64,000 nucleotides of DNA from Arthrobacter globiformis (lineage in GTDB: Bacteria > Actinomycetota > Actinomycetes > Actinomycetales > Micrococcaceae). Below the pieces are notes generated by a model that saw nothing but the letters and a program-made list of their open reading frames with translations, did not search any database and was not told where the DNA came from. The stretch spans positions 310,001-374,000 of the forward strand of contig NZ_QLNP01000098.1 of NCBI RefSeq assembly GCF_003261175.1, read 5' to 3'. Numbering within the stretch: position 1 is the stretch's first letter; each line of letters opens with the position of its first letter. Below are positions 34,640 to 44,526 of the stretch, piece after piece. The translations under genes were made by a program, and so were the position numbers.

Positions 34640-36447
34640 TGAGGCAGACAGGCCAGGCAACATACCCCCGCGAAGCCGCGAAGCCCGTGCAGGGCCCGGA
34701 ACGCTTCGACGTCTGGGCCCCTGATGCCGGATCCGTGACGCTGCTGGCCGGCGGGGAGCGCTACGCCATGCAGCGCCGGCCCGGCACCCGACCCGAGAAC
34801 GAGGGCTGGTGGACCGCCGCCGGCGCACCCGCTGACGGCGACGTCGACTACGGGTACCTTCTGGACGGCGACGAAACACCGCTGCCTGACCCCAGGACCC
34901 GCCGCCAGCCCGACGGCGTCCACGCCCTGTCCCGCACCTTCGACCCCGCCGCGCACACCTGGCAGGAGGACGGCTGGCAGGGTAGGGAACTGCAGGGGGC
35001 GGTCATCTACGAGCTGCACCTCGGAACATTCACGCCCGAAGGGACGCTGGATGCGGCCGCCGGCAAGCTGGACTACCTGGCCGGCCTGGGCGTGGACTTC
35101 ATCGAACTGCTGCCCGTGAACGCGTTCAACGGCACGCACAACTGGGGCTACGACGGCGTGCAGTGGTTTGCCGTCCACGAGGCGTACGGCGGACCGGAAG
35201 CGTACCAACGGTTCGTCGACGCTGCCCACTCGGCAGGCCTTGGTGTGATCCAGGACGTGGTCTACAACCACCTCGGCCCCAGCGGGAACTACCTCCCGCG
35301 TTTCGGGCCCTACCTCAAGCAGGGCGAGGGCAACACGTGGGGCGACTCCGTGAACCTGGACGGGCCCGGCTCCGACCATGTGCGCCGCTTCATCCTGGAC
35401 AACTTGGCCATGTGGCTTCGCGACTACCGCGTGGACGGCCTGCGGCTCGACGCAGTCCACGCCCTGAAGGACGAGCGCGCGGTCCACATCCTCGAGGACT
35501 TCGGGGCGCTGGCTGATCAGATCTCCGCCGAGGTGGGACGGCCGCTGACGCTCATTGCCGAATCCGACCTCAACAACCCACGGCTGCTGTATCCGCGCGA
35601 CGTCAACGGCTACGGGCTGGAGGGGCAGTGGAGCGACGACTTCCACCACGCCGTCCACGTCAACGTCACCGGCGAAACCACCGGCTACTACAGCGACTTC
35701 GACTCGCTCGGAGCCCTCGCGAAAGTGCTCCGGGACGGTTTCTTCCACGACGGCAGCTACTCCAGCTTCCGGGAACGCCACCACGGCAGGCCGATCAATT
35801 TCAGCGCCGTCCATCCGGCCGCCCTGGTGGTCTGCTCGCAGAACCACGACCAGATCGGCAACCGCGCCACCGGGGACCGGCTTTCGCAGACGCTGCCGTA
35901 CGGGAGCCTGGCGCTCGCCGCGGTGCTGACTCTGACCGGGCCCTTCACGCCCATGCTGTTCATGGGCGAGGAGTACGGGGCCAGCACGCCGTGGCAGTTC
36001 TTCACCTCCCACCCGGAGCCGGACCTCGGCAAGGCCACCGCGGAAGGCCGGATCAAGGAGTTCGAGCGCATGGGGTGGGATCCCGCCGTCGTGCCCGATC
36101 CCCAGGATCCCGAGACTTTCCGCCGGTCCAAGCTGGACTGGGCGGAGGCCGCCCACGGCGACCACGGCCGGCTGCTGGAGTTGTACCGTTCGCTCACCGC
36201 GCTGCGCCGCTCAACGCCGGACCTCACCAAGCTGGGCTTTGAGGACACGCAGGTGGAGTTCGACGACGACGCCCGCTGGCTCCGGTTCCGGCGCGGCGGC
36301 GTGCAGGTGCTGCTCAACTTCTCGGAGCAGCCGGTAAGTCTGGAAGGTGCGGGGACGGCCCTGCTGTTGGCCACCGACGACTCCGTCCGGCTGGAGGGTG
36401 AGCGCGCGGAACTCGGCCCGCTGAGCGCCGCCGTCGTCAGTGACTGA
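34639..36447 (+). CDS. treZ: Maltooligosyl trehalose trehalohydrolase
   Basis: 602 residues from ATG at 34639, sharing one base with the treY stop. N-terminal E-set domain (about 20-105) and GH13 barrel with [15 protein letters not shown], nucleophile in [12 protein letters not shown], acid in LIAESDLN and [10 protein letters not shown]. Releases trehalose from the TreY product. Last gene of the operon; a strong hairpin follows. Confidence 0.96.
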
Positions 36448-36456
36448 GTGAATTTG

Positions 36457-36505
36457 CTGGGGCGGCGTCCACCGCCGGTGACCGGATGGTGGACGCCAGC
36501 CCCGC
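36457..36505 (+). terminator. Stem-loop after treZ
   Basis: GGCGTCCACC (36464-36473) pairs with GGTGGACGCC (36488-36497), extended by a GGGGC/GCCCC arm with one bulge. No U-run. Probably a terminator or 3'-end stabiliser for the tre operon. Confidence 0.55.
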
Positions 36506-36535
36506 AGCCCTGGTGGGGCTGGCAGGATGGAACGT

Positions 36536-37576
36536 ATGACTTATGTGGCCTCGGACACCCGCTATGACACCATGCCGTACCGCCGCGTTGGACGCAGCGG
36601 CCTGAAACTGCCAGCCATCTCGCTGGGCCTGTGGCACAACTTCGGTGACGACAAGCGCTTCGACGAACAGCGCGCCATCCTGCGCCGCGCCTTCGACCTC
36701 GGCGTCAACCACTTCGACCTCGCCAACAACTACGGCCCCCCGGACGGCTCCGCGGAGACCAACTTCGGCCGGCATCTGCAGGACGACTTCAAGCCTTACC
36801 GCGACGAGCTGGTCATCTCCACCAAGGCCGGTTACTTCATGTGGCCCGGGCCGTACGGCGAATGGGGCTCCCGGAAGTACCTGATCTCCAGCCTGGACCA
36901 GTCGCTGCAGCGGATGGGCCTGGACTACGTGGACATCTTCTACAGCCACCGTCCGGACCCGGAGACGCCGCTGGAAGAGACCATGGGCGCGCTGGACTAC
37001 GCCGTGCGCTCCGGCAAAGCGTTGTACGCGGGCATCTCGTCCTACACCCCGGAGCAGACGCTCGAGGCTGCGCGCATCCTGAAGGAGCTCGGTACCCCGC
37101 TGCTCATCCACCAGCCCAGCTACTCCATGCTGAACCGCTGGACCGAGAACGGCTCGCCCAACCTGTACGAGGCGCTGGAGCAGGTGGGCGCCGGCTCCAT
37201 CGCGTTCTCCCCTCTGGCCCAGGGCATGCTGACCGACCGCTACCTCGACGGCGTCCCGGCTGACTCCCGCGCCGCCAAGGCCAGGTTCCTGTCCGAATCC
37301 TCGTTGACGGAGGACAAACTGGACCGGGTGCGCGGGCTCAACGCCATCGCTGCCGGCCGCGGACAATCGCTGGCGCAGATGGCCATCGCCTGGATCCTGC
37401 GCGACCAGCCCAAGGGCTCCCCGGTAACCTCCGCTCTCGTCGGGGCGTCCAGCGTCCGGCAGCTCGAGGACACCTTGGCCGCCATCAACAACCTTGAGTT
37501 CAGCAGCGACGAGCTGACCGCGATCGACGAGTTCGCCGTCGAATCCGACATCAACCTCTGGGCGCAGAGGGTCTGA
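36536..37576 (+). CDS. Aldo-keto reductase, YghZ/Kv-beta-like
   Basis: 346 residues from the ATG at 36536, chosen over 36527 because a CAGGAT box lies 7 nt upstream. AKR tetrad: Asp and Tyr in FDLANNYGPP, Lys in STKAGYFMWPGPYG, His in YSHRPDPETPLEETM. The GPYGEWGSRKYL insert is typical of the YghZ (L-glyceraldehyde-3-phosphate/methylglyoxal reductase) branch. NADPH-binding end with VGASSVRQLEDTL. The natural substrate cannot be read from sequence; detoxification of aldehydes is a reasonable guess. Confidence 0.92.
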   Translation: MTYVASDTRYDTMPYRRVGRSGLKLPAISLGLWHNFGDDKRFDEQRAILRRAFDLGVNHFDLANNYGPPDGSAETNFGRHLQDDFKPYRDELVISTKAGYFMWPGPYGEWGSRKYLISSLDQSLQRMGLDYVDIFYSHRPDPETPLEETMGALDYAVRSGKALYAGISSYTPEQTLEAARILKELGTPLLIHQPSYSMLNRWTENGSPNLYEALEQVGAGSIAFSPLAQGMLTDRYLDGVPADSRAAKARFLSESSLTEDKLDRVRGLNAIAAGRGQSLAQMAIAWILRDQPKGSPVTSALVGASSVRQLEDTLAAINNLEFSSDELTAIDEFAVESDINLWAQRV

Positions 37577-37695
37577 ACCGGCACGACAAAAAGCGGCGTA
37601 ACCAAGCGGCCGGGGCCGGCGGGAACAAAGCGGGTCCCGGCGGCGTTTGGTTACACTGATAAGCGCGCCGCGTGGCGCGGTGCCCGTCAGACGCC

Positions 37696-37705
37696 GTTGT
37701 ACAAC
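37696..37705. promoter_or_regulatory. Perfect palindrome GTTGTACAAC upstream of ino1
   Basis: 10-bp palindrome within a wider CGTTGT-ACA-ACAACG dyad, 49 bp before the ino1 start. A TACACT box at 37652-37657 is a possible -10, which would place the dyad in a roughly 90-nt leader. Candidate operator; regulator unknown. Confidence 0.35.
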
Positions 37706-37753
37706 AACGTACGGACGCGCAGGGCACTTGAAGTTTGTTCTCAAAGGAGTTCC

Positions 37754-38839
37754 GTGTCTTCAAATCCGATTCGTGTAGCTATCGTCGGCGTGGGTAACTG
37801 TGCCGCTTCGCTGGTCCAGGGTGTCCATTACTACCGGGATGCCGACCCCCAGGCCACGATTCCGGGTCTGATGCACGTGGAGTTCGGCAAGTACCACGTC
37901 AACGATGTGCAGTTCGTGGCCGCGTTTGATGTTGACGGCAAGAAGGTCGGTCATGACCTGGCCGATGCGATCCTGGCCAGCGAGAACAACACGATCAAGC
38001 TCGCCGAGGTCCCGCCGAGCGGTGTGACGGTGCAGCGCGGGCCCACCCTGGATGGTCTGGGCCGGTATTACCTGGAGACCATCGAGCAGTCCACCGAGGA
38101 GCCGGTCGACGTCGTCCAGGCCCTGAAGGACGCCCAGGCCGATGTCATGGTCTGCTACCTGCCGGTCGGGTCCCAGGAGGCCGCGGAGTTCTATGCGCAG
38201 GCCGCGATCGACGCGGGTGTGGCGTTCGTCAACGCGCTGCCGGTGTTCATCGCCGGCACCAAGGAGTGGGCTGATAAGTTCACCGCAGCGGGTGTGCCGA
38301 TCGTGGGCGATGACATCAAGAGCCAGATCGGTGCCACCATCACGCACCGTGTGATGGCGAAGCTGTTCGAGGACCGCGGTGTGACGCTGGACCGCACGTA
38401 CCAGCTGAACGTGGGCGGCAACATGGACTTCAAGAACATGCTGGAGCGGGACCGGCTGGAATCGAAGAAGATCTCCAAGACCCAGGCCGTGACCTCCAAT
38501 GTTGAGGCCGAGCTGGCGGCGAAGGACGTCCACATTGGCCCGTCCGATTACGTGCAGTGGCTCGATGACCGCAAGTGGGCGTTTGTCCGCCTGGAGGGCC
38601 GGAACTTCGGTGACGCGCCGGTGTCTTTGGAGTACAAGCTGGAGGTCTGGGACTCGCCGAACTCCGCGGGTGTGATCATCGATGCGATCCGTGCGGCGAA
38701 GATCGGCCTGGACCGGGGCGTCGGCGGTCCGCTGGTCTCGGCGTCGAGCTACTTCATGAAGTCCCCGCCGGAGCAGTTCAACGACGACCTTGCCCGCGAA
38801 AAGGTCGAGGCCTTCATCCGCGGCGACCTCGACCGCTAA
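37754..38839 (+). CDS. ino1: Inositol-3-phosphate synthase
   Basis: 361 residues from GTG at 37754 with AAAGGAG 4 nt upstream. NAD-binding start [18 protein letters not shown], then [42 protein letters not shown] and the C-terminal [15 protein letters not shown], diagnostic of the actinobacterial Ino1 family. Converts glucose-6-P to inositol-3-P for mycothiol and inositol lipids. Codon use is strongly biased, suggesting high expression. mshA, a user of its product, is 5 kb away. Confidence 0.96.
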
Positions 38840-38852
38840 ACACTCCCGGACG

Positions 38853-38948
38853 CTCTATCACTTCCTGCAGGTTTTCCCCGGACGCGTCCTCAGGTCCTGC
38901 AGGTTTTCCCGCGATGCTCTCTCACCTTCGGGTGGGGGAGCATCGCCG
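38853..38948 (+). repeat. 32-bp-period intergenic repeat, copy 1 (three units)
   Basis: Units begin at 38853, 38885 and 38917, exactly 32 bp apart. Unit 1 reads CTCTATCACTTCCTGCAGGT then TTTCCCCGGACG; unit 2 keeps the TCCTGCAGGTTTTCCC part; unit 3 keeps only CTCTCTCACCTT. The array starts 14 bp after the ino1 stop with the leader GGACG, in sense orientation, in the convergent ino1/MerR gap. Confidence 0.7.
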
Positions 38949-38949
38949 C

Positions 38950-39573
38950 TTAAGCGTGCGTTTCGTAGCGCCGAATGGCGTGGCTCGTATGCGCGAGTGC
39001 CAGCAGCTTCAGGACGAGCTGGCCATGCAGATGCATGCCGACGGCTGCTGTCATGATCAGCTGATTGACGTCATCTGGCGCGGTTGTGGCAGAAATATTC
39101 GCTGCGGCAATCGTGTCCACCGCCTGGCTGTACGCGTTGAGCAGGTCATCGGTCACCGGCACGCCGAGACTTTCCATTAGGGCCAAGTGGGCATTGAGGG
39201 AGTTTCTGGCGTCGCTCGGTACATCCGGCCAGTTCCGGAAGCGTACGACGGCGTCGCCCGCCGGTGTGCGCAGGTCGCCGTGCTCCGTGCTCACGTCGTC
39301 GAGGCCCAGCACTGTGCGCTGGACCGCGGCCAACAGATCAAGGCGGGGTGTGCCGCCGTCGGCCATCCTGAGCAGGGATCCGATCTGGGCGATATTCAAC
39401 CCGACCACGCGCCGCAGCGACTGGATCAGTTCCAGCCGGCTCACGTGATGCTCTGAATACTCCGCCCGGGTGGAGTGGACGGAGCGGCCCGCGGGCAACA
39501 GGCCCTCGCGGAGGTAGAACTTGATGCTGGCAGGGGAGACTCCCGTCCGCTCGCTGAGCTCCTTCAGCTGCAT
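38950..39573 (-). CDS. MerR-family transcriptional regulator
   Basis: 207 residues. N-terminal MerR DNA-binding domain (about 1-72) with LKELSERTGVSPASIKFYLREGLL. The C-terminal part is mostly helical, lacks conserved metal-binding cysteines and ends in a hydrophobic helix region, so it is not a metal sensor of the known type. GAGG...GGAG ribosome binding sequence upstream. Divergent from the DUF2306-type membrane protein gene, whose promoter has a typical MerR dyad between -35 and -10; it probably controls that gene and itself. Inducer unknown. Confidence 0.9.
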   Translation of the reverse strand: MQLKELSERTGVSPASIKFYLREGLLPAGRSVHSTRAEYSEHHVSRLELIQSLRRVVGLNIAQIGSLLRMADGGTPRLDLLAAVQRTVLGLDDVSTEHGDLRTPAGDAVVRFRNWPDVPSDARNSLNAHLALMESLGVPVTDDLLNAYSQAVDTIAAANISATTAPDDVNQLIMTAAVGMHLHGQLVLKLLALAHTSHAIRRYETHA

Positions 39574-39606
39574 GCCCGCTCCTTCCTCGGCGGATGGCAG
39601 CCTCTT

Positions 39607-39666
39607 GGATAGCTGCCGGGCCGCTGGCTATCTTGATTTACACCCTCTGGATAGTGGCTCTATCCT
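39607..39666 (+). promoter_or_regulatory. Divergent promoter with four GGATAG half-sites (MerR target)
   Basis: Half-sites GGATAG/CTATC(C) begin at 39607, 39628, 39649 and 39660: spacings of 21, 21 and 11 bp, all on one face of the helix. For the plus-strand gene, -35 TTTACA (39637-39642), an 18-bp spacer and -10 TATCCT (39661-39666) fit; the dyad GGATAG-5-CTATCC sits in that spacer and enters the -10, as in MerR-type promoters. On the minus strand TATCCA inside the first half-site could be the -10 of the regulator gene. Confidence 0.6.
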
Positions 39667-39672
39667 ATTCGC

Positions 39673-40221
39673 ATGGAGCCTTGGAATGTACTGCTTGCCA
39701 GCCACGTCATTGCCGCCCTTTTTGTCCTTGCCATTGGCCCGGTGCAGATCCTCCGGCGCCACCGGGACCGCATCCACCGGACCATGGGACACCTGTGGGT
39801 CGCGGCAATGTACTACGTCTGCTTCAGTAGCTTCTGGATCGTCACCGACGGGCATTTCAGCTGGCTTCACGGACTCTCGGCGTTCACGATCGTGACGGTC
39901 ACCCTTGGGCTGATCAGCGCGGTGCGCCGGAACATCCCGGCGCATAGGGGAAACATGATCGGCAGCTACATCGGCATCGCTGTGGCGTTCGGCTTCGCCG
40001 TCTCTGTGCCCGGTCGTGGCATTCCGCGCCTCCTGGCCGAGGACTTGCCGACGGCTATGTTCGTTGCCGCGCTTGTGGCGCTCACCGTCGGCGTCGTCTT
40101 CATTTCGCTCCGGCGCGGAGGCCGTTCTCTGAACCGGTCCGAATCGAAGGGTCCAGCAGCGTCGCTCGCCGAGCGAGACGCCGGGCATGCGGCCGAGGCC
40201 GCTGCCAAGGTGGACGGGTAG
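39673..40221 (+). CDS. DUF2306-type four-helix membrane protein
   Basis: 182 residues. Hydrophobic segments near 5-25, 43-62, 67-88, 98-116 and 128-148; conserved-looking His and Arg residues in ILRRHRDRIHRTMGHLW and FSWLHGLSAF resemble DUF2306 proteins of unknown function. The tail (about 150-182) is polar, Ala-rich and probably cytoplasmic. ATG lies 6 nt after the TATCCT box, so the transcript is probably leaderless. Likely the target of the divergent MerR regulator. No enzymatic role can be assigned. Confidence 0.75.
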   Translation: MEPWNVLLASHVIAALFVLAIGPVQILRRHRDRIHRTMGHLWVAAMYYVCFSSFWIVTDGHFSWLHGLSAFTIVTVTLGLISAVRRNIPAHRGNMIGSYIGIAVAFGFAVSVPGRGIPRLLAEDLPTAMFVAALVALTVGVVFISLRRGGRSLNRSESKGPAASLAERDAGHAAEAAAKVDG

Positions 40222-40255
40222 CTGCCTGTTAGTCGCACGGCTCCCGCGCCGGACG

Positions 40256-40330
40256 CTCTATCACTTTCTGCAACGTGCGGTGCGATCCTCTATCACTTTC
40301 GGCAGCTGTCACGGCCACGCTCACTCACCA
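40256..40330 (+). repeat. 32-bp-period intergenic repeat, copy 2 (three units)
   Basis: CTCTATCACTTTC units begin at 40256 and 40288, and a degenerate CTCACTCACC at 40320, again 32 bp apart. The leader GGACG precedes unit 1, 30 bp after the stop of the DUF2306-type gene, in sense orientation. The third unit overlaps the 3' end of the converging DUF559 pseudogene. Confidence 0.7.
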
Positions 40331-41300
40331 GCGTCCGCAAAGCCCGAAGCATAAGGGTGATCCAACTGGGCCCTTCGCCTTGCTTGTTTGATACGGATGA
40401 CTGTTCCACGAAAACCCTCGTCGAGGTCATCCTTTCTTACGGTGAGGACGGTCCATCCTGCAGCTTCGAAGGCCTTGTCTCGCCGTTTGTCGCTGAAGAT
40501 CTGAGCCTCGACTAGGTGATGGCCGCCGTCGTATTGAATGGCCAGCCGCTGGGCGCGGTATCCGAGATCGGCCGACGGCGAGAAGGGGTCGCCGCTTCTT
40601 AGCGTGATTTGGAGTTCGGGTTCAGGGAGTCCGGAGTCCACCATCGCCAAGCGCAGCATTGATTCCGGCGCCGAGTCTGCGCCCACCCGCATCAGGTCCA
40701 GGGCTTCCCTGGCGCGGACAACGCCCTGCAGATTGGGGTGCCGCAGAACGAGGGAACGCAGCCCGGCTGGGGTATCGAAGGGCTGTGTCCGGCCCTCAAA
40801 TCCATTCGAGGGATACGGATTATCTGGTCACCCAAGCACACCAAGTCCCTAAGCGGCAGCCTTCGCGCCAAATCCAGCCATGTCCTTGAACGGGTACTGA
40901 TTCGGATGCCATCAACCGTTTCAATCTCGTCTTCTTCGGCCAGCAGCGTATGGCCAAACACCCCCTTGCGACGAGCCGAGGGCAGTCTTTTTGGCTTGCT
41001 CAAATGTAGTTCCGTAGAGTCCGCCAACCATGATGGCAGCACCTGGCATCGAAGACGCGCGGCAGTGACATGCGAGATCCAGGCACTAGGCGAAACTTCA
41101 GACAGCGCCCGCGCCGCCGCCTCCAGGTCAAAGTTCCAGTCCCACGGGCGGTAGAGTCCGCGCCCCACATGGATCACGTCCCGACGTCGCAGCCGCGACG
41201 CGGGAATGCCTTCGGTTCGGGCCAAATCGAAGGTGAACGGAGCTGATGCCAAACGGGGAGGTAAGCCGGCGCGCGTTTCCATGCAGGCATTGTGACCCAT
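40321..41300 (-). pseudogene. DUF559 endonuclease-domain protein, frameshifted
   Basis: Two open frames together make one normal gene of about 325 codons. The first (ATG 41300 or 41282) runs in frame to about 40797, ending the family-like sequence at IIRIPRMDL; then the reading continues in another frame (EGRTQPFDTPAGLRSLVLRH, EALDLMRVGADSAPESMLRL) to the stop at 40321. Adding one G at about 40796 restores the frame. The second part has IQYDGGHHLVEAQIFSDKRR and FEAAGWTVLTVRKDDL, a PD-(D/E)xK-like DUF559 domain; the first resembles the N-terminal wing of AbiEi-like proteins. True decay or a sequencing error are both possible. Confidence 0.75.
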
Positions 41301-41333
41301 ATTGAGGAGGTGCCGCAGAAGTTATCCACAGGG

Positions 41334-41512
41334 GGTAGGTGGCGAGAGAGGGTGCCGGGAAAACCGGTAGGTAGTGAGAGAGGGTCGCGGGCAAACAGGT
41401 AGGTAGTGAGAGAGGGTGCCAAGAAAACCGGTAGGTAGTGAGAGAGGGCCGCCGGCAAACAGGTAGGTAGTGAGAGAGGGTCCCGGGAAAACCGGTAGGT
41501 AGTGAGAGGGCG
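41334..41512 (-). repeat. 32-bp-period intergenic repeat, copy 3 (six units, alternating types)
   Basis: GGTAGGT anchors on the plus strand at 41334, 41366, 41398, 41430, 41462 and 41494, an exact 32-bp ladder. The unit core is GGTAGGTAGTGAGAGAGGG. Between cores two types alternate: GGGAAAACC-like (A) and GGCAAACA-like (B), giving a 64-bp higher-order period. On the minus strand it starts directly after the fhs stop with GGACGCCCTCTCACT, matching copies 1 and 2. Confidence 0.85.
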
Positions 41513-41514
41513 TC

Positions 41515-43227
41515 CTAGAACAGGCCGATCGGGTTGCCGTCGCGGTCCACGTCCATGCGCATGGCCGCCGGAACGGCCGGAAGGCCCGGCATGGTCATCA
41601 CCGCTCCGGTCAGGGCCACGATGAAGCCGGCACCGGTCTTGGGGATGAGGTCGCGGACGTGGATGGTGAAGCCCTTGGGTGCTCCCAGCCGCGAGGCGTC
41701 GTCCGTGAACGAGTACTGCGTCTTTGCCATGCAGACCGGCAGCCCGGACCAGCCGTTCTTCTCGATGTCCGCCAGGCGGCGCAGGGCAGGTACCGAAAAG
41801 TCCACACCATCGGCGCCGTAGATTTCCTGGACGATGGTGCGGATCTTGTCCTCCACGGACATGTCCAGCGGGTAGAGATGCCGGAACGACGACGGCCCGT
41901 TCACCGCGGCGGCGACCTTGGCAGCCAGTTCATCGCCGCCGTCGCCGCCCCCGCCCTTTCCCCAGATGTCAGCCACCGCGGCCTGGATGCCCTCGCCCGC
42001 GCACCACCCGAGCAGCCAGTTGAGCTCCTCCAGGCTATCCGCGGGGAACTTGTTGATCGCCACCACCGGCGTCACGCCGAACCGCTCCACATTCCGGACA
42101 TGCCGGCGCAGGTTCACCACGCCCGCGGCCAGGGCCTCGACATTCGGCTCCTTCAGCCGGTCCTTGCGCACCCCGCCTTGCATCTTGAGTGCGCGAACGG
42201 TCGCAACCACCACGACGGCGGCCGGCGCCACATCAGCGATCCGCGCCTTGATGTCCATGAACTTTTCCGCGCCGAGGTCAGCCCCGAACCCCGCCTCCGT
42301 CACTACGATGTCGGCAAGCCGGCGGGCGGTCTGCGTGGCGATCAGCGAGTTGCAGCCATGGGCAATGTTCGCGAACGGCCCGCCATGGACCAGTGCGGGA
42401 GTGCCCGCGATGGTCTGGACGAGGTTCGGCTTGATCGCATCCTTCAGCAGCAGGGTCAGCGCGCCCTGCACGCCCAGGTCCGCCACGGTGACCGGCGTCC
42501 GGTCATAGGTGTAGCCGAAGGTGATGCGGCCCAGCCGGTCCCGGAGATCGGCCACGTCGGTGGCGAGGCAAAAGACCGCCATGATTTCGGATGCGACGGT
42601 GATGTCGAAGCCGTCCTGGCGGGGGACACCCTGTGAAGGCCCGCCGAGGCCAATGACCACCTCGCGCAGGGAACGGTCGTTCATGTCCAGGACCCGCTTG
42701 AAAGTCATCCGGCGCGGGTCGATGTTCAGTTCGTTGCCTTGGTAGATGTGGTTGTCCACGAGGGCCATGAGGGCATTGTTGGCGGACGTGACGGCATGGA
42801 AGTCGCCGGTGAAGTGCAGATTGATCTCGTCCATGGGCAGCACCTGGGAGAGCCCGCCGCCGGTGGCCCCGCCCTTCATGCCGAGGATCGGCCCGAGCGA
42901 GGGCTCACGCAGCGCGACCATCACCTTGTGGCCCGCCCGCGCGAGCGAATCCGCGAGCCCCACCGTCGTGGTCGATTTTCCTTCTCCGGCGGGTGTTGGC
43001 GACATCGCGGAAACCAGGACCACTTTGCCGGCGGGCGCCGGGGCAGACAGCTTCGCGGGGTCGATCTTGGCTTTGAAGCGGCCGTAGAGCTCCACGGCCC
43101 CGGCATCGATGCCGGCGGCCGCGGCGATCTCCTCGATCGGCCGGAGCACTGCCCTGCGGGCAATGTCCAGGTCGCTCAGGGGAGTCTTGCTCTGGCCGGT
43201 ATCGCTCAGGGGAGTGTTGTCAGACAT
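41515..43227 (-). CDS. fhs: Formate-tetrahydrofolate ligase
   Basis: 570 residues. P-loop [15 protein letters not shown], then [34 protein letters not shown] and [17 protein letters not shown], all conserved in the family. Makes 10-formyl-THF from formate and ATP, feeding purine synthesis and one-carbon metabolism. AAAGGA lies 7 nt upstream. 21 bp downstream of mshA on the same strand, so probably co-transcribed. Normal length. Confidence 0.97.
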
Positions 43228-43248
43228 CGTCGTCCTTTCCGAAGGTGT

Positions 43249-44526
43249 TTAGCCGGTGAGCCGAGACCCGTAGACGGCGGCCAGGGGGTGGCTGGAGGCA
43301 TATTCGTCGACGGCGGCGTGGTAGCTGTCGAGGGTGATGGCGGCGGTGCGTTGCCAGCCGGAGTTTGCCGCGTGGATGGCGGCGGCGGTGCCCATGTGCT
43401 GGCGGGTGGCGGGGTCGTCGTGGAGGGCTTCGAGGGCGTCGGCCCAGTCTGATGCCCGGTGGCCGTCCACCAAAAGCCCGGTGCGGCCGTGGCTGACCGC
43501 GCGGGCGAGTCCGCCGACGCGGGTGGCAACCACGGGGGTGCCGCAGGCCTGGGCTTCCAGCGCCACGAGGCCGAAGGATTCGCTGTAGGAGGGCATAACG
43601 ACGACGTCGGCCGAGCGGTACCAGGAGGCCAGTTCCGGTGCGCCGACCGGCGGGTGGTGGGTGACGGCGTCGTCCAGTCCGGCGGCGCTGATGAGGGTTT
43701 TGAGGTTGAAATCCTTGGCGCCGCTGAGCGCGCCAAGGATGGTGAGTTTGAGGTCGACGTCGGGGCGGCGCTGGCGGAGCAGGGCGGCGGCCTTGAGCAG
43801 GATCTGCGGGCCTTTCAGCCGCTGGATGCGGCCGGCGAAGAGCAGGTGGAAGGTGCCGGGTGCGATGCCGTGTTCGGTCCGGGACCGGGTCCGGAACGCG
43901 GGGGTGAAGACGGAGAGGTCGACGCCGGGGGGTGCGATGTCGATGTGGTCGAAGTCGGCGCCATAGTGGGAGACGAGTTCCGCGGCTTCGGCGCTGGTGT
44001 TGGCGATCAGGCGGGTGGCGCCGTCGACGATGCGGTGTTCGCCGTCTTCGCGGCGGCGGGGTTCGGGTTGTTCGCCGGAGTTCAGGAGGAGGTTCTTGAC
44101 TTTGGCCATGGTGTGCATGGTGTGCACGAGCGGGACGTTCCACAGGCCGGAGAGCTCGAGGCCGGCGACTCCGGAAACCCAATAATGGGAGTGGATGAGG
44201 TCGTAGCGGCCATGGGGCTGCTGGGCGCGGACGCGTTCGATTTCGGCGACCATGCTGTGCAGCAGTTCGGGGAGTTCTTCTTTGGGGAGCTTGCGGGGCG
44301 GTCCGGCGAGGACGTTGTGGACGCAGACGCCGGGGTCGGGATGTTCGACGGCGGGCTGCCCGGCGGCGGTGGAGCGGGTGAAGATTTCCACTTCGATGCC
44401 GGTTTCGGCCAGGGCGGAGGCGAGGCCGCGGATGTAGACGTTCATGCCGCCCGCGTCCCCTGAACCGGGCTGTTCCATGGGGGAGGTGTGCAGCGACAGG
44501 AGAGCCACGCGCTTGATCGCAGACAT
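43249..44526 (-). CDS. mshA: D-inositol-3-phosphate glycosyltransferase (mycothiol)
   Basis: 425 residues from ATG at 44526 with GGAGG 3 nt upstream. GT4 glycosyltransferase with LSLHTSPMEQPGSGDAGGMNVYI at the acceptor/donor site, HSHYWVSG, and the nucleotide-sugar segment PSYSESFGLVALEAQACGTPVVA. Joins GlcNAc from UDP-GlcNAc to inositol-3-P, the first mycothiol step. The window also holds the makers of both substrates (ino1; glmS and glmM). Confidence 0.95.
   Translation of the reverse strand: MSAIKRVALLSLHTSPMEQPGSGDAGGMNVYIRGLASALAETGIEVEIFTRSTAAGQPAVEHPDPGVCVHNVLAGPPRKLPKEELPELLHSMVAEIERVRAQQPHGRYDLIHSHYWVSGVAGLELSGLWNVPLVHTMHTMAKVKNLLLNSGEQPEPRRREDGEHRIVDGATRLIANTSAEAAELVSHYGADFDHIDIAPPGVDLSVFTPAFRTRSRTEHGIAPGTFHLLFAGRIQRLKGPQILLKAAALLRQRRPDVDLKLTILGALSGAKDFNLKTLISAAGLDDAVTHHPPVGAPELASWYRSADVVVMPSYSESFGLVALEAQACGTPVVATRVGGLARAVSHGRTGLLVDGHRASDWADALEALHDDPATRQHMGTAAAIHAANSGWQRTAAITLDSYHAAVDEYASSHPLAAVYGSRLTG

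What the first reader, a model, noticed from the sequence alone, without database searches (positions are those of the whole stretch)
38853..41512. Family of intergenic repeats with an exact 32-bp period at three loci, all just after stop codons
Seen: arrays at 38853-38948, 40256-40330 and 41334-41512. Unit starts are exactly 32 bp apart in all three. The consensus reads CTCTMTCACTWCCTRCMGGT followed by TTTCCCSGGACS. Each array opens with a GGACGC-like leader and reads in the sense of the gene just ended (ino1, the DUF2306-type gene, fhs). The period is kept even where the units have decayed, so the spacing itself may matter. Possible roles: 3' UTR elements, protein-binding ladders (three helical turns per unit), or a non-autonomous mobile repeat that targets gene ends. 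I know no named family that fits.
Basis: seen in the sequence. Interest (0 to 1): 0.75.

Follow-up and report, generated by a model that had tools for sequence, protein, structure and literature searches.

The report
Gene-end DNA ladders in Arthrobacter
Soil bacteria of the Arthrobacter group carry, right after many genes, ladders of a short directional DNA word repeated every 32 letters, laid out as if a still unknown protein sits there to mark or block the end of transcription.

Summary
Three ladders of a 32-bp unit (consensus GACGCTCTCTCACTTCCTGCnGGTTTTCCCC) start 9, 30 and 0 nt after the stops of ino1, a DUF2306 gene and fhs. They belong to a genus-wide family, found also in at least one genome of another genus. 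A two-core ladder pattern has 700 matches in 22 of 25 genomes, none in the reversed control. Of 451 neighbouring cores 415 are exactly 32 bp apart although spacers differ by 49%; indels per substitution are roughly 20-fold fewer than in ordinary intergenic DNA. Elements prefer convergent gaps (GTDB stretches: 44 of 76 convergent, 55 of 172 tandem, 16 of 101 divergent). Two-sided elements face each other (93 to 1). Facing cores sit at preferred lengths about 10 bp apart. In six of seven genomes cores share a dialect more than spacers do. Single units are not palindromes, unlike REPs.

Best reading: sites for an unidentified sequence-specific DNA-binding protein, on one face of the helix, acting as a polar transcription roadblock or insulator at gene ends. 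Binding and termination are inferred, not shown. Rho loading, hairpin or REP-like roles and mobility remain rivals. Eight literature searches found no description.

The parts
38849..38944 (+). Ladder A after ino1: units at 38849, 38881 and 38913, 32 bp apart, first unit 9 nt after the TAA
   Evidence: sequence, unit scan
38911..38946 (+). Terminal hairpin of ladder A (GCGATGCTCTCTCACC-TTCG-GGTGGGGGAGCATCGC); its 5' arm is the third unit
   Evidence: fold of the tail 38840-38950, z -3.34; similar hairpins at the ino1 end of several relatives
40252..40347 (+). Ladder B after the DUF2306 gene: units at 40252, 40284 and 40316 (third weak), 30 nt after the stop
   Evidence: fold z -0.38
41323..41514 (-). 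Ladder C after fhs: six units on the minus strand, first base directly after the TAG; alternating unit variants (64-bp super-period)
   Evidence: fold z +1.36, C 0.45 and G 0.15
37697..38839 (+). ino1, inositol-1-phosphate synthase, host gene of ladder A (called here from the TTG at 37697; start not settled)
   Evidence: Pfam PF01658 3.6e-36
39673..40221 (+). DUF2306 membrane protein gene, host of ladder B
   Evidence: Pfam PF10067 3.1e-14
41515..43227 (-). fhs, formate-tetrahydrofolate ligase, host of ladder C
   Evidence: Pfam PF01268 3.6e-250

Best explanation
The ladders are arrays of oriented double-stranded DNA sites for one sequence-specific DNA-binding protein per genome, not yet identified. 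Each site is the 13- to 20-bp core RACGCYCNNTCAS(NTCCTGC) in the first part of a 32-bp unit. Direct copies lie three helical turns apart, so neighbouring molecules would sit on one face; facing copies lie at steps of about one turn. Sites mostly point in the direction of transcription from just after the stop codon; where two genes converge, the two ladders point at each other and often share a central palindrome. The bound row most likely acts as a polar roadblock or insulator that halts RNA polymerase at the gene end, with release by factors such as Mfd or Rho. Shown: the arrays, their period, orientation, placement, facing rule, spacing classes and dialects. Inferred: a protein reader, the DNA level of reading, and the roadblock function.
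For: Period: 415 of 451 neighbouring cores at 32 bp (341 of 369 without the pattern-selected G167 loci), missing units leaving 64 or 96. The period is constrained: 36 off-32 spacings among 451 pairs that differ by about 9.3 substitutions each, against 0.19 indels per substitution in 88 array-free orthologous gaps. Another genus: G128 has ladders with its own dialect, 43 of 43 at 32 bp, though these loci were picked with a model that itself holds a 32-bp step. Facing rule: '><' 93, '<>' 1. Spacing of facing cores: scores, reversed control 0; 58 palindromes in 11 of 13 genomes, backwards-pattern control 5: 27 at 27-32, 21 at 35-37, 10 at 46-49, none at 25-26, 33-34, 38-45, 50-52; 62 of 71 genomes, control 0; of 405 matches by my sum 75 are listed, from 10 genomes; 70 of the 75 are 27-30, 36-37 or 47-48 bp. 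In each of G150, G156, G179, G198, G199, G205 and G212 two or three of these classes occur in that genome's own core dialect. A long palindrome class is exactly 59 in 38 of 40. Middles that are not self-complementary keep the classes: up to 52 bp, 13 of 14 are 37 or 46-49. Dialect: positions 6-9 alike 1.00 between loci within G167 and 0.84 to other genomes, spacers 0.36 and 0.38; the same direction in six of seven genomes. Gene ends: GTDB stretches 44 of 76 convergent, 55 of 172 tandem, 16 of 101 divergent gaps; contiguous stretches 10 of 88, 10 of 378, 0 of 133; one-way ladders in tandem gaps 31 sense, 8 antisense; in G000 10 of 11 sense arrays start within 30 nt of the stop. No U-tract terminator at the three window arrays.
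Against: No reader protein was found and no binding or RNA-end data exist here. The spacing classes may be a few inherited palindrome types, so Rayleigh values overstate independence; peaks at 57-61 and 68-69 are partly a class plus 32. Five of the 75 listed are off-peak (34, 35, 45, 45, 52), and G128 has one at 44. Some ino1-end hairpins of relatives, whose right arm lacks the TCA, have lengths between the classes. The contiguous stretches contain the ino1-fhs region; without those ends 13 loci remain (4 convergent, 9 tandem, 0 divergent; convergent against divergent p 0.02, any gene end against divergent p 0.08). Elements also lie in divergent gaps (16 of 115 GTDB loci with a known gap; 3 of 27 in G167). 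G000 itself shows no dialect by the measure (0.60 within, 0.71 to others). Two-sided elements fold strongly as RNA (mean z -7.4, n 39) and one-way ladders are C-rich and unremarkable in fold, which Rho would like.
Confidence: 0.4

Rival explanations
1. Rho-dependent terminators: the C-rich, G-poor sense RNA right after the stop codon is a Rho loading site, and the unit is a tandem rut element; terminal hairpins act as pause sites or protect the 3' end.
For: Mostly in sense just after the stop; 76 one-way ladders of three or more units are C 0.416 and G 0.209; no U-tracts at the window arrays.
Against: Rut sites need no exact 32-nt period or near-invariant TCA core (recalled); one relative's ladder has more G than C (G165 at ino1, GACGCTCCCTCAGGTTTGGCTGTTTGGGTTGT); facing arms at about 10-bp steps and genome dialects have no role in this model; Rho would not be expected to change dialect between species (inference).
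Confidence: 0.22
2. REP/BIME-like extragenic repeats: an interspersed family kept at gene ends for mRNA 3' protection, or as gyrase or nucleoid-protein sites that absorb supercoils between converging genes.
For: Gene-end and convergent-gap preference and facing pairs resemble REPs as described in PMC3733652 (abstract and passages); two-sided elements fold into strong RNA hairpins (mean z -7.4 in the first 39 folded).
Against: Single units are not palindromes: stem of 8 or more in 0 of 650; head-to-tail rows are the rule here but absent, under-represented or negligible in those families; CGTC repeats were reported there from five phyla that do not include Actinobacteria.
Confidence: 0.16
3. A non-autonomous mobile repeat that inserts at gene ends and then grows by unit duplication.
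For: Unit number differs between G000 and G009 at one gap (two more sense units in G009 by eye; the script scored 5 against 2) and one site occupied in G000 is empty in G009; G167 cores are nearly uniform.
Against: Spacers of different loci in one genome are little or no more alike than between genomes (0.36-0.49 against 0.38-0.42; higher by 0.05-0.09 in G009, G137 and G063), so little sign of recent copying of whole units; the ino1 and fhs ends are occupied by a ladder or a core-bearing hairpin in most of the genomes examined; no match of ladder C in plasmid or phage records and one odd 16-bp-period hit in IMG/VR. A linked transposase was not searched for.
Confidence: 0.11
4. DNA uptake signals that double as terminators, as in Neisseria and Pasteurellaceae.
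For: Facing copies between convergent genes resemble paired uptake signals (PMC1852404, passages); species dialects of uptake signals are recalled.
Against: Single copies are not above control in 400 kb (29 single hits against 27 units in the reversed sequence) and the model finds 77 matches in the genome, whereas uptake signals generally have at least 1,000 copies and same-direction neighbours within 10 nt are rare.
Confidence: 0.03

Closest known systems
REP / BIME repeats, especially CGTC-tagged REPs (PMC3733652)
   Same: Interspersed, mostly downstream of genes, enriched between convergent genes, often as facing pairs; a GACGC/GCGTC edge resembles the CGTC tag
   Different: Here the unit is not a palindrome, head-to-tail ladders with a 32-bp period are the rule, facing cores sit at about 10-bp steps, and the family lies in Actinobacteria
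BOX elements of pneumococcus (PMC3049150)
   Same: Modular element with a variable number of tandem modules and parts that can fold
   Different: BOX has distinct boxA and boxC ends around boxB modules; here one and the same oriented core makes rows and arms, and it favours gene ends
Neisseria/Haemophilus uptake signals in terminators (PMC1852404)
   Same: Facing copies of one short motif, most often between convergent genes
   Different: Copy number here far lower, single copies not above control, tandem same-direction rows common, no U-tail at the window arrays
Roadblock terminators: Reb1 in yeast, TTF-I sites after rRNA genes (PMC10310618 passages and reference list; the tandem Sal-box arrangement is recalled)
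   Same: Protein sites that stop polymerase, in the case of Rap1 depending on orientation
   Different: No such genome-wide array system is known to me in bacteria; no protein has been identified here

Membership tests
CGTC-tagged REP | each unit is itself a palindrome with an 8-9 bp stem | tested here: not met
   stem of 8 or more in 0 of 650 units (last unit of each array left out); shuffles 1; definition from PMC3733652
CGTC-tagged REP | dimers head-to-head; head-to-tail negligible | tested here: not met
   head-to-tail rows at 32 bp are the main form; facing pairs are also present
REP with RAYT transposase (GTAG) | GTAG tag and a flanking tyrosine transposase gene | not tested
   the unit consensus has no GTAG at its edges; a transposase search was not made
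BOX | distinct boxA and boxC end modules around tandem boxB | tested here: not met
   the same core type in rows and arms of the loci read; definition from PMC3049150 passages
DNA uptake signal | about 1,000 or more copies, mostly single | tested here: not met
   77 model matches in the own genome; singles at control level in 400 kb
Intrinsic (U-tract) terminator | hairpin followed by a run of T | tested here: not met
   4 terminator-like sites in 36000-44000 against 4.7 in shuffles, none at the three arrays; tested on the window only
Rho-dependent terminator | C-rich, G-poor, unstructured RNA upstream of the RNA end | tested here: inconclusive
   C 0.416, G 0.209 in 76 one-way ladders; fold z -1.23 sense and -1.20 antisense in the first 40 of them; Rho dependence cannot be tested
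Array of sites for a DNA-binding protein | conserved core with spacing in whole helical turns | tested here: met
   32-bp direct period and facing distances at about 10-bp steps, with the reservation that the classes may be inherited
Array of sites for a DNA-binding protein | a protein that binds it | not testable with these tools
   no binding data
Rfam RNA families | match to a described RNA family | tested here: not met
   0 matches up to E 1 in window 38000-42500

The most novel reading that the evidence does not exclude
Arthrobacter and at least one relative in another genus use a genome-wide protein-based punctuation of genes: a fast-evolving sequence-specific DNA-binding protein, with its own site dialect in each species, polymerises or clamps along rows of oriented sites three helical turns apart just behind stop codons and between converging genes, and acts as a polar barrier that ends transcription, a bacterial counterpart of Reb1/TTF-I roadblock termination.
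Probability: 0.26. Interest if true: 0.92.

Novelty: new variant of a known kind. Interest (0 to 1): 0.72.

Why it matters
If the ladders are bound and block polymerase, bacteria have a third, protein-based way to end transcription besides hairpins and Rho, in a phylum where U-tract terminators are scarce (recalled). The species dialects would give a natural series for following how a DNA-binding protein and its many sites change together. Even if the function is different, a 32-bp oriented ladder kept across two genera with facing arms at about helical steps is an unexplained rule of bacterial gene ends, testable with one binding assay.

Tried and rejected
A genome-wide switch between ladder and long-hairpin states was considered after (the two states agree at ino1 and fhs; 6 changes on the 24-row tree) and dropped: ino1 and fhs are near neighbours in G000, G149, G151 and others, so one transfer can move both, and genomes with hairpins there (G150, G171, G172, G173) have ladders elsewhere. 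A resemblance of the unit to lambda boxA came to mind (recalled) and was not pursued, because dialects change the shared letters while NusB-S10 would not be expected to follow. Model-free lag analysis of gaps: lag 32 is the top lag in convergent gaps of G000 and G159 and third in G163; in tandem gaps it is second in G159 and not among the top five in G000 or G163; in divergent gaps it is fifth in G000 and not listed in the others. It is weak because few gaps carry ladders. An iterated unit scan drifted into chance single hits; array-based scoring replaced it. The Oribacterium MAG hit (L122) is another repeat. Not used: seven further scans of viral contigs, structure prediction and fold search (no protein candidate), phrogs, ncbifam and padloc. 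Literature: eight answered searches in the open PMC library listed no paper that describes this family; subscription papers were not searched, and I read only passages of five papers (the abstract too for PMC3733652). PMC12306157 lists Arthrobacter livingstonensis in a table of predicted REP counts (passage), so part of this family may already sit unnamed in that prediction.
Full report
What is there. The unit is 32 bp, GACGCTCTCTCACTTCCTGCnGGTTTTCCCC; positions 2, 5, 10, 11 and 12 (A, C, T, C, A) are among the most constant, 21-32 the least. Ladder A follows ino1 by 9 nt and ends in a hairpin whose 5' arm is its third unit; ladder B follows a DUF2306 gene by 30 nt; ladder C starts on the base after the fhs stop and has six units. 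No Rfam family matches in 38000-42500.

The family. In the own genome (G000) a two-unit sequence model finds 77 matches at E up to 1, about 40 loci by my count of that list. Among 149 genomes of the family 22 match at E up to 0.01. Of the 8 own-genus genomes that the call names, 7 match with 13-42 hits each; 107 genomes without a match are not named. Of the 15 matching genomes of other genera 13 have one marginal hit, G024 has 3 and G128 has 26. A pattern of two neighbouring cores has 700 matches (both directions, summed by me) in 22 of 25 genomes and 0 with the pattern read backwards. G128, in another genus, has its own dialect, GACGCTCGCTCACTCCACGTCGG, in the four loci read, three of them just behind a called stop; 43 of 43 neighbouring cores in 20 loci are 32 bp apart, but those loci were picked with a model that itself contains a 32-bp step. 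G024, of the same genus, shows 32-bp steps too in the two loci printed.

The spacing is under constraint. Scoring only the first 20 positions, so that spacing does not enter the score, 415 of 451 neighbours 24-40 bp apart are exactly 32 and 33 are 31 or 33; when a unit is missing the next mostly lies at 64 or 96. In the GTDB set the pairs that the pattern had selected were left out; the G167 loci were selected with a pattern that allows 31-33, and without them it is 341 of 369. Neighbouring units differ in 17% of core and 49% of spacer positions. In 88 orthologous array-free gaps between G000 and G009 there are 0.19 indels per substitution; the ladders have about 0.009. The two numbers come from different kinds of comparison, so the ratio is rough.

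Placement. Contiguous stretches (G000 400 kb, G163 200 kb, G159 200 kb, G009 341 kb) hold 20 element loci, in 10 of 88 convergent, 10 of 378 tandem and 0 of 133 divergent gaps of 60 bp or more (reversed control 0). These stretches were not chosen blindly: each holds the ino1 region. Without the ino1, DUF2306 and fhs ends 13 loci remain, 4 convergent, 9 tandem, 0 divergent; convergent against divergent gives p 0.02, any gene end against divergent p 0.08. The larger sets, selected by the repeat but not by gene context, are clearer: in the GTDB stretches 44 of 76 convergent, 55 of 172 tandem and 16 of 101 divergent gaps (40 loci at an edge; p 8e-9 convergent against divergent, 0.004 tandem against divergent), in G167 12 of 19, 12 of 35 and 3 of 26. 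Genes were called by my own codon-usage script. In the 400 kb of G000 one search lists 14 arrays: 11 behind a sense gene, 10 of them within 30 nt of the stop, 2 others, 1 inside a gene; the reversed control gave 2. In the GTDB stretches 238 arrays (reversed control 0) divide into 100 that start -25 to 60 nt from a sense stop, median 7, 33 farther behind a sense gene, 78 with an antisense gene upstream, 24 at an edge and 3 over a called gene. One-way ladders in tandem gaps run 31 in sense to 8 in antisense.

Two-sided elements. When both directions occur close together the rows face each other: 93 '><', 1 '<>' (G159), 1 complex, 108 one-way. The length between the innermost cores, from ACGC to GCGT, is not free. 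In one search (reversed control 0) it piles up at 27-29, 37, 47-48, 57-59 and 68; (58 palindromes in 11 of 13 genomes, 5 with the backwards pattern) at 27-32, 35-37 and 46-49; (62 of 71 genomes, control 0) 70 of the 75 listed are 27-30, 36-37 or 47-48, the others 34, 35, 45, 45 and 52. The 75 come from 10 genomes and are 75 of 405 by my sum. A separate long palindrome class, TTGCYCTATCAS...STGATAGRGCAA, is exactly 59 in 38 of 40, although 52-82 was allowed (12 of 25 genomes); some of these are orthologous copies. After removal of middles at least 65% alike, 76 distances still fit a 10.1-bp period, and 26 with middles that are not self-complementary fit 10.8 bp with no equal in 5,000 uniform draws. 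The reservations are important: 57-61 and 68-69 also arise as a short class plus one 32-bp step, as one search shows plainly, and a class may be inherited, so these values overstate the case. What carries weight is that two or three classes about 10 bp apart recur at different loci of genomes with different core dialects (G150, G156, G179, G198, G199, G205, G212), and that middles which cannot pair keep them (13 of 14 up to 52 bp). In G128 eight of ten distances are 26-29 or 59, two are 44 and 86.

Dialects. Between loci of one genome, positions 6-9 of the core agree at 1.00 in G167, G137 and G163, 0.95 in G063, 0.75 in G009, 0.70 in G159 and only 0.60 in G000, against 0.84, 0.88, 0.90, 0.86, 0.54, 0.51 and 0.71 to other genomes; spacers agree 0.36-0.49 within and 0.38-0.42 between genomes, with an excess of 0.05-0.09 in G009, G137 and G063. 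So a dialect shows in six of seven genomes, not in G000, and three samples have only 5 arrays each. Cores are matched across a genome more than spacers are, which points to a shared reader more than to copying of whole units.

Evolution at one site. Behind ino1 and fhs, in 27 genomes each, the end mostly carries either a ladder (an array of at least two scored units: 15 of 27 at ino1, 14 of 27 at fhs) or a long hairpin whose arm bears a similar core (about ten at ino1); G152 has neither at fhs and G155 has a stem without the core at ino1 (counted by me). G000 and G009 have 99% identical Fhs, yet quite different units there. Of three array gaps that could be compared between G000 and G009, one has two more sense units in G009 by eye, one is alike and one is empty in G009; five array gaps found no orthologue in the part fetched. 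In the other genera read, the fhs end shows ordinary stems or nothing I recognise as a ladder.

How it most likely works. Shown: an oriented, strictly spaced array that favours gene ends, with facing pairs at preferred lengths and genome dialects. The DNA level is favoured because the spacing classes persist when the middle cannot pair, because a 32-bp period is three turns, and because the same core appears in unpaired rows and in stems. A roadblock is favoured because of the orientation, the position close behind stops, the excess between convergent genes and the lack of U-tracts in the window. Roadblocks that depend on orientation are known, for instance Rap1 in yeast (PMC10310618, passages). 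Against this stand the C-rich RNA of one-way ladders and the strong RNA fold of two-sided ones, the copies in divergent gaps, and the absence of a candidate protein.

Comparison with known kinds. REPs share placement and facing pairs, but their unit is a palindrome and head-to-tail pairs are absent, rare or negligible (PMC3733652, abstract and passages); here 0 of 650 units hold a stem of 8 bp. BOX elements share a variable number of tandem modules but have distinct end modules (PMC3049150, passages). Uptake signals in terminators share facing copies between convergent genes but are far more numerous (PMC1852404, passages). As a family of repeats this is new to me and was not found in the eight searches made; as a kind it is closest to gene-end repeats or to site arrays, hence the label of a new variant, with a categorically new mechanism as the bold reading.

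Noticed in passing
window 40321-41300 (-): An open frame between the DUF2306 gene and fhs is split over two frames (202 and 123 aa); it recalls a DUF559/AbiEi-type gene (recalled; no Pfam hit for the 202-aa part; the other part was not searched) and seems broken; ladder B runs into its 3' end.
   Followed up: no
L245 (G009, second ino1 copy): G009 and G150 have two ino1 copies; the second copy of G009 also carries a ladder.
   Followed up: no
L393 1097-1140 (-): A viral contig (IMG/VR) has ACGCCCCATCACC cores at about half the period, 16 bp, three copies; possibly a related use of the core.
   Followed up: no
L177 5895-6726: A one-way ladder of 26 units, all 32 bp apart, with two further ladders just upstream; the largest array seen in those stretches.
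   Followed up: no
window 41323-41514: Ladder C shows a 64-bp super-period: units alternate between two variants, which suggests duplication of unit pairs.
   Followed up: partly
L341-L352 (genomes G150 to G157): A separate 59-bp palindrome family TTGCYCTATCAS...STGATAGRGCAA, 0-6 per genome in 12 of 25 genomes, shares the TCAS core; seen at ino1 and fhs ends, other positions not examined.
   Followed up: partly
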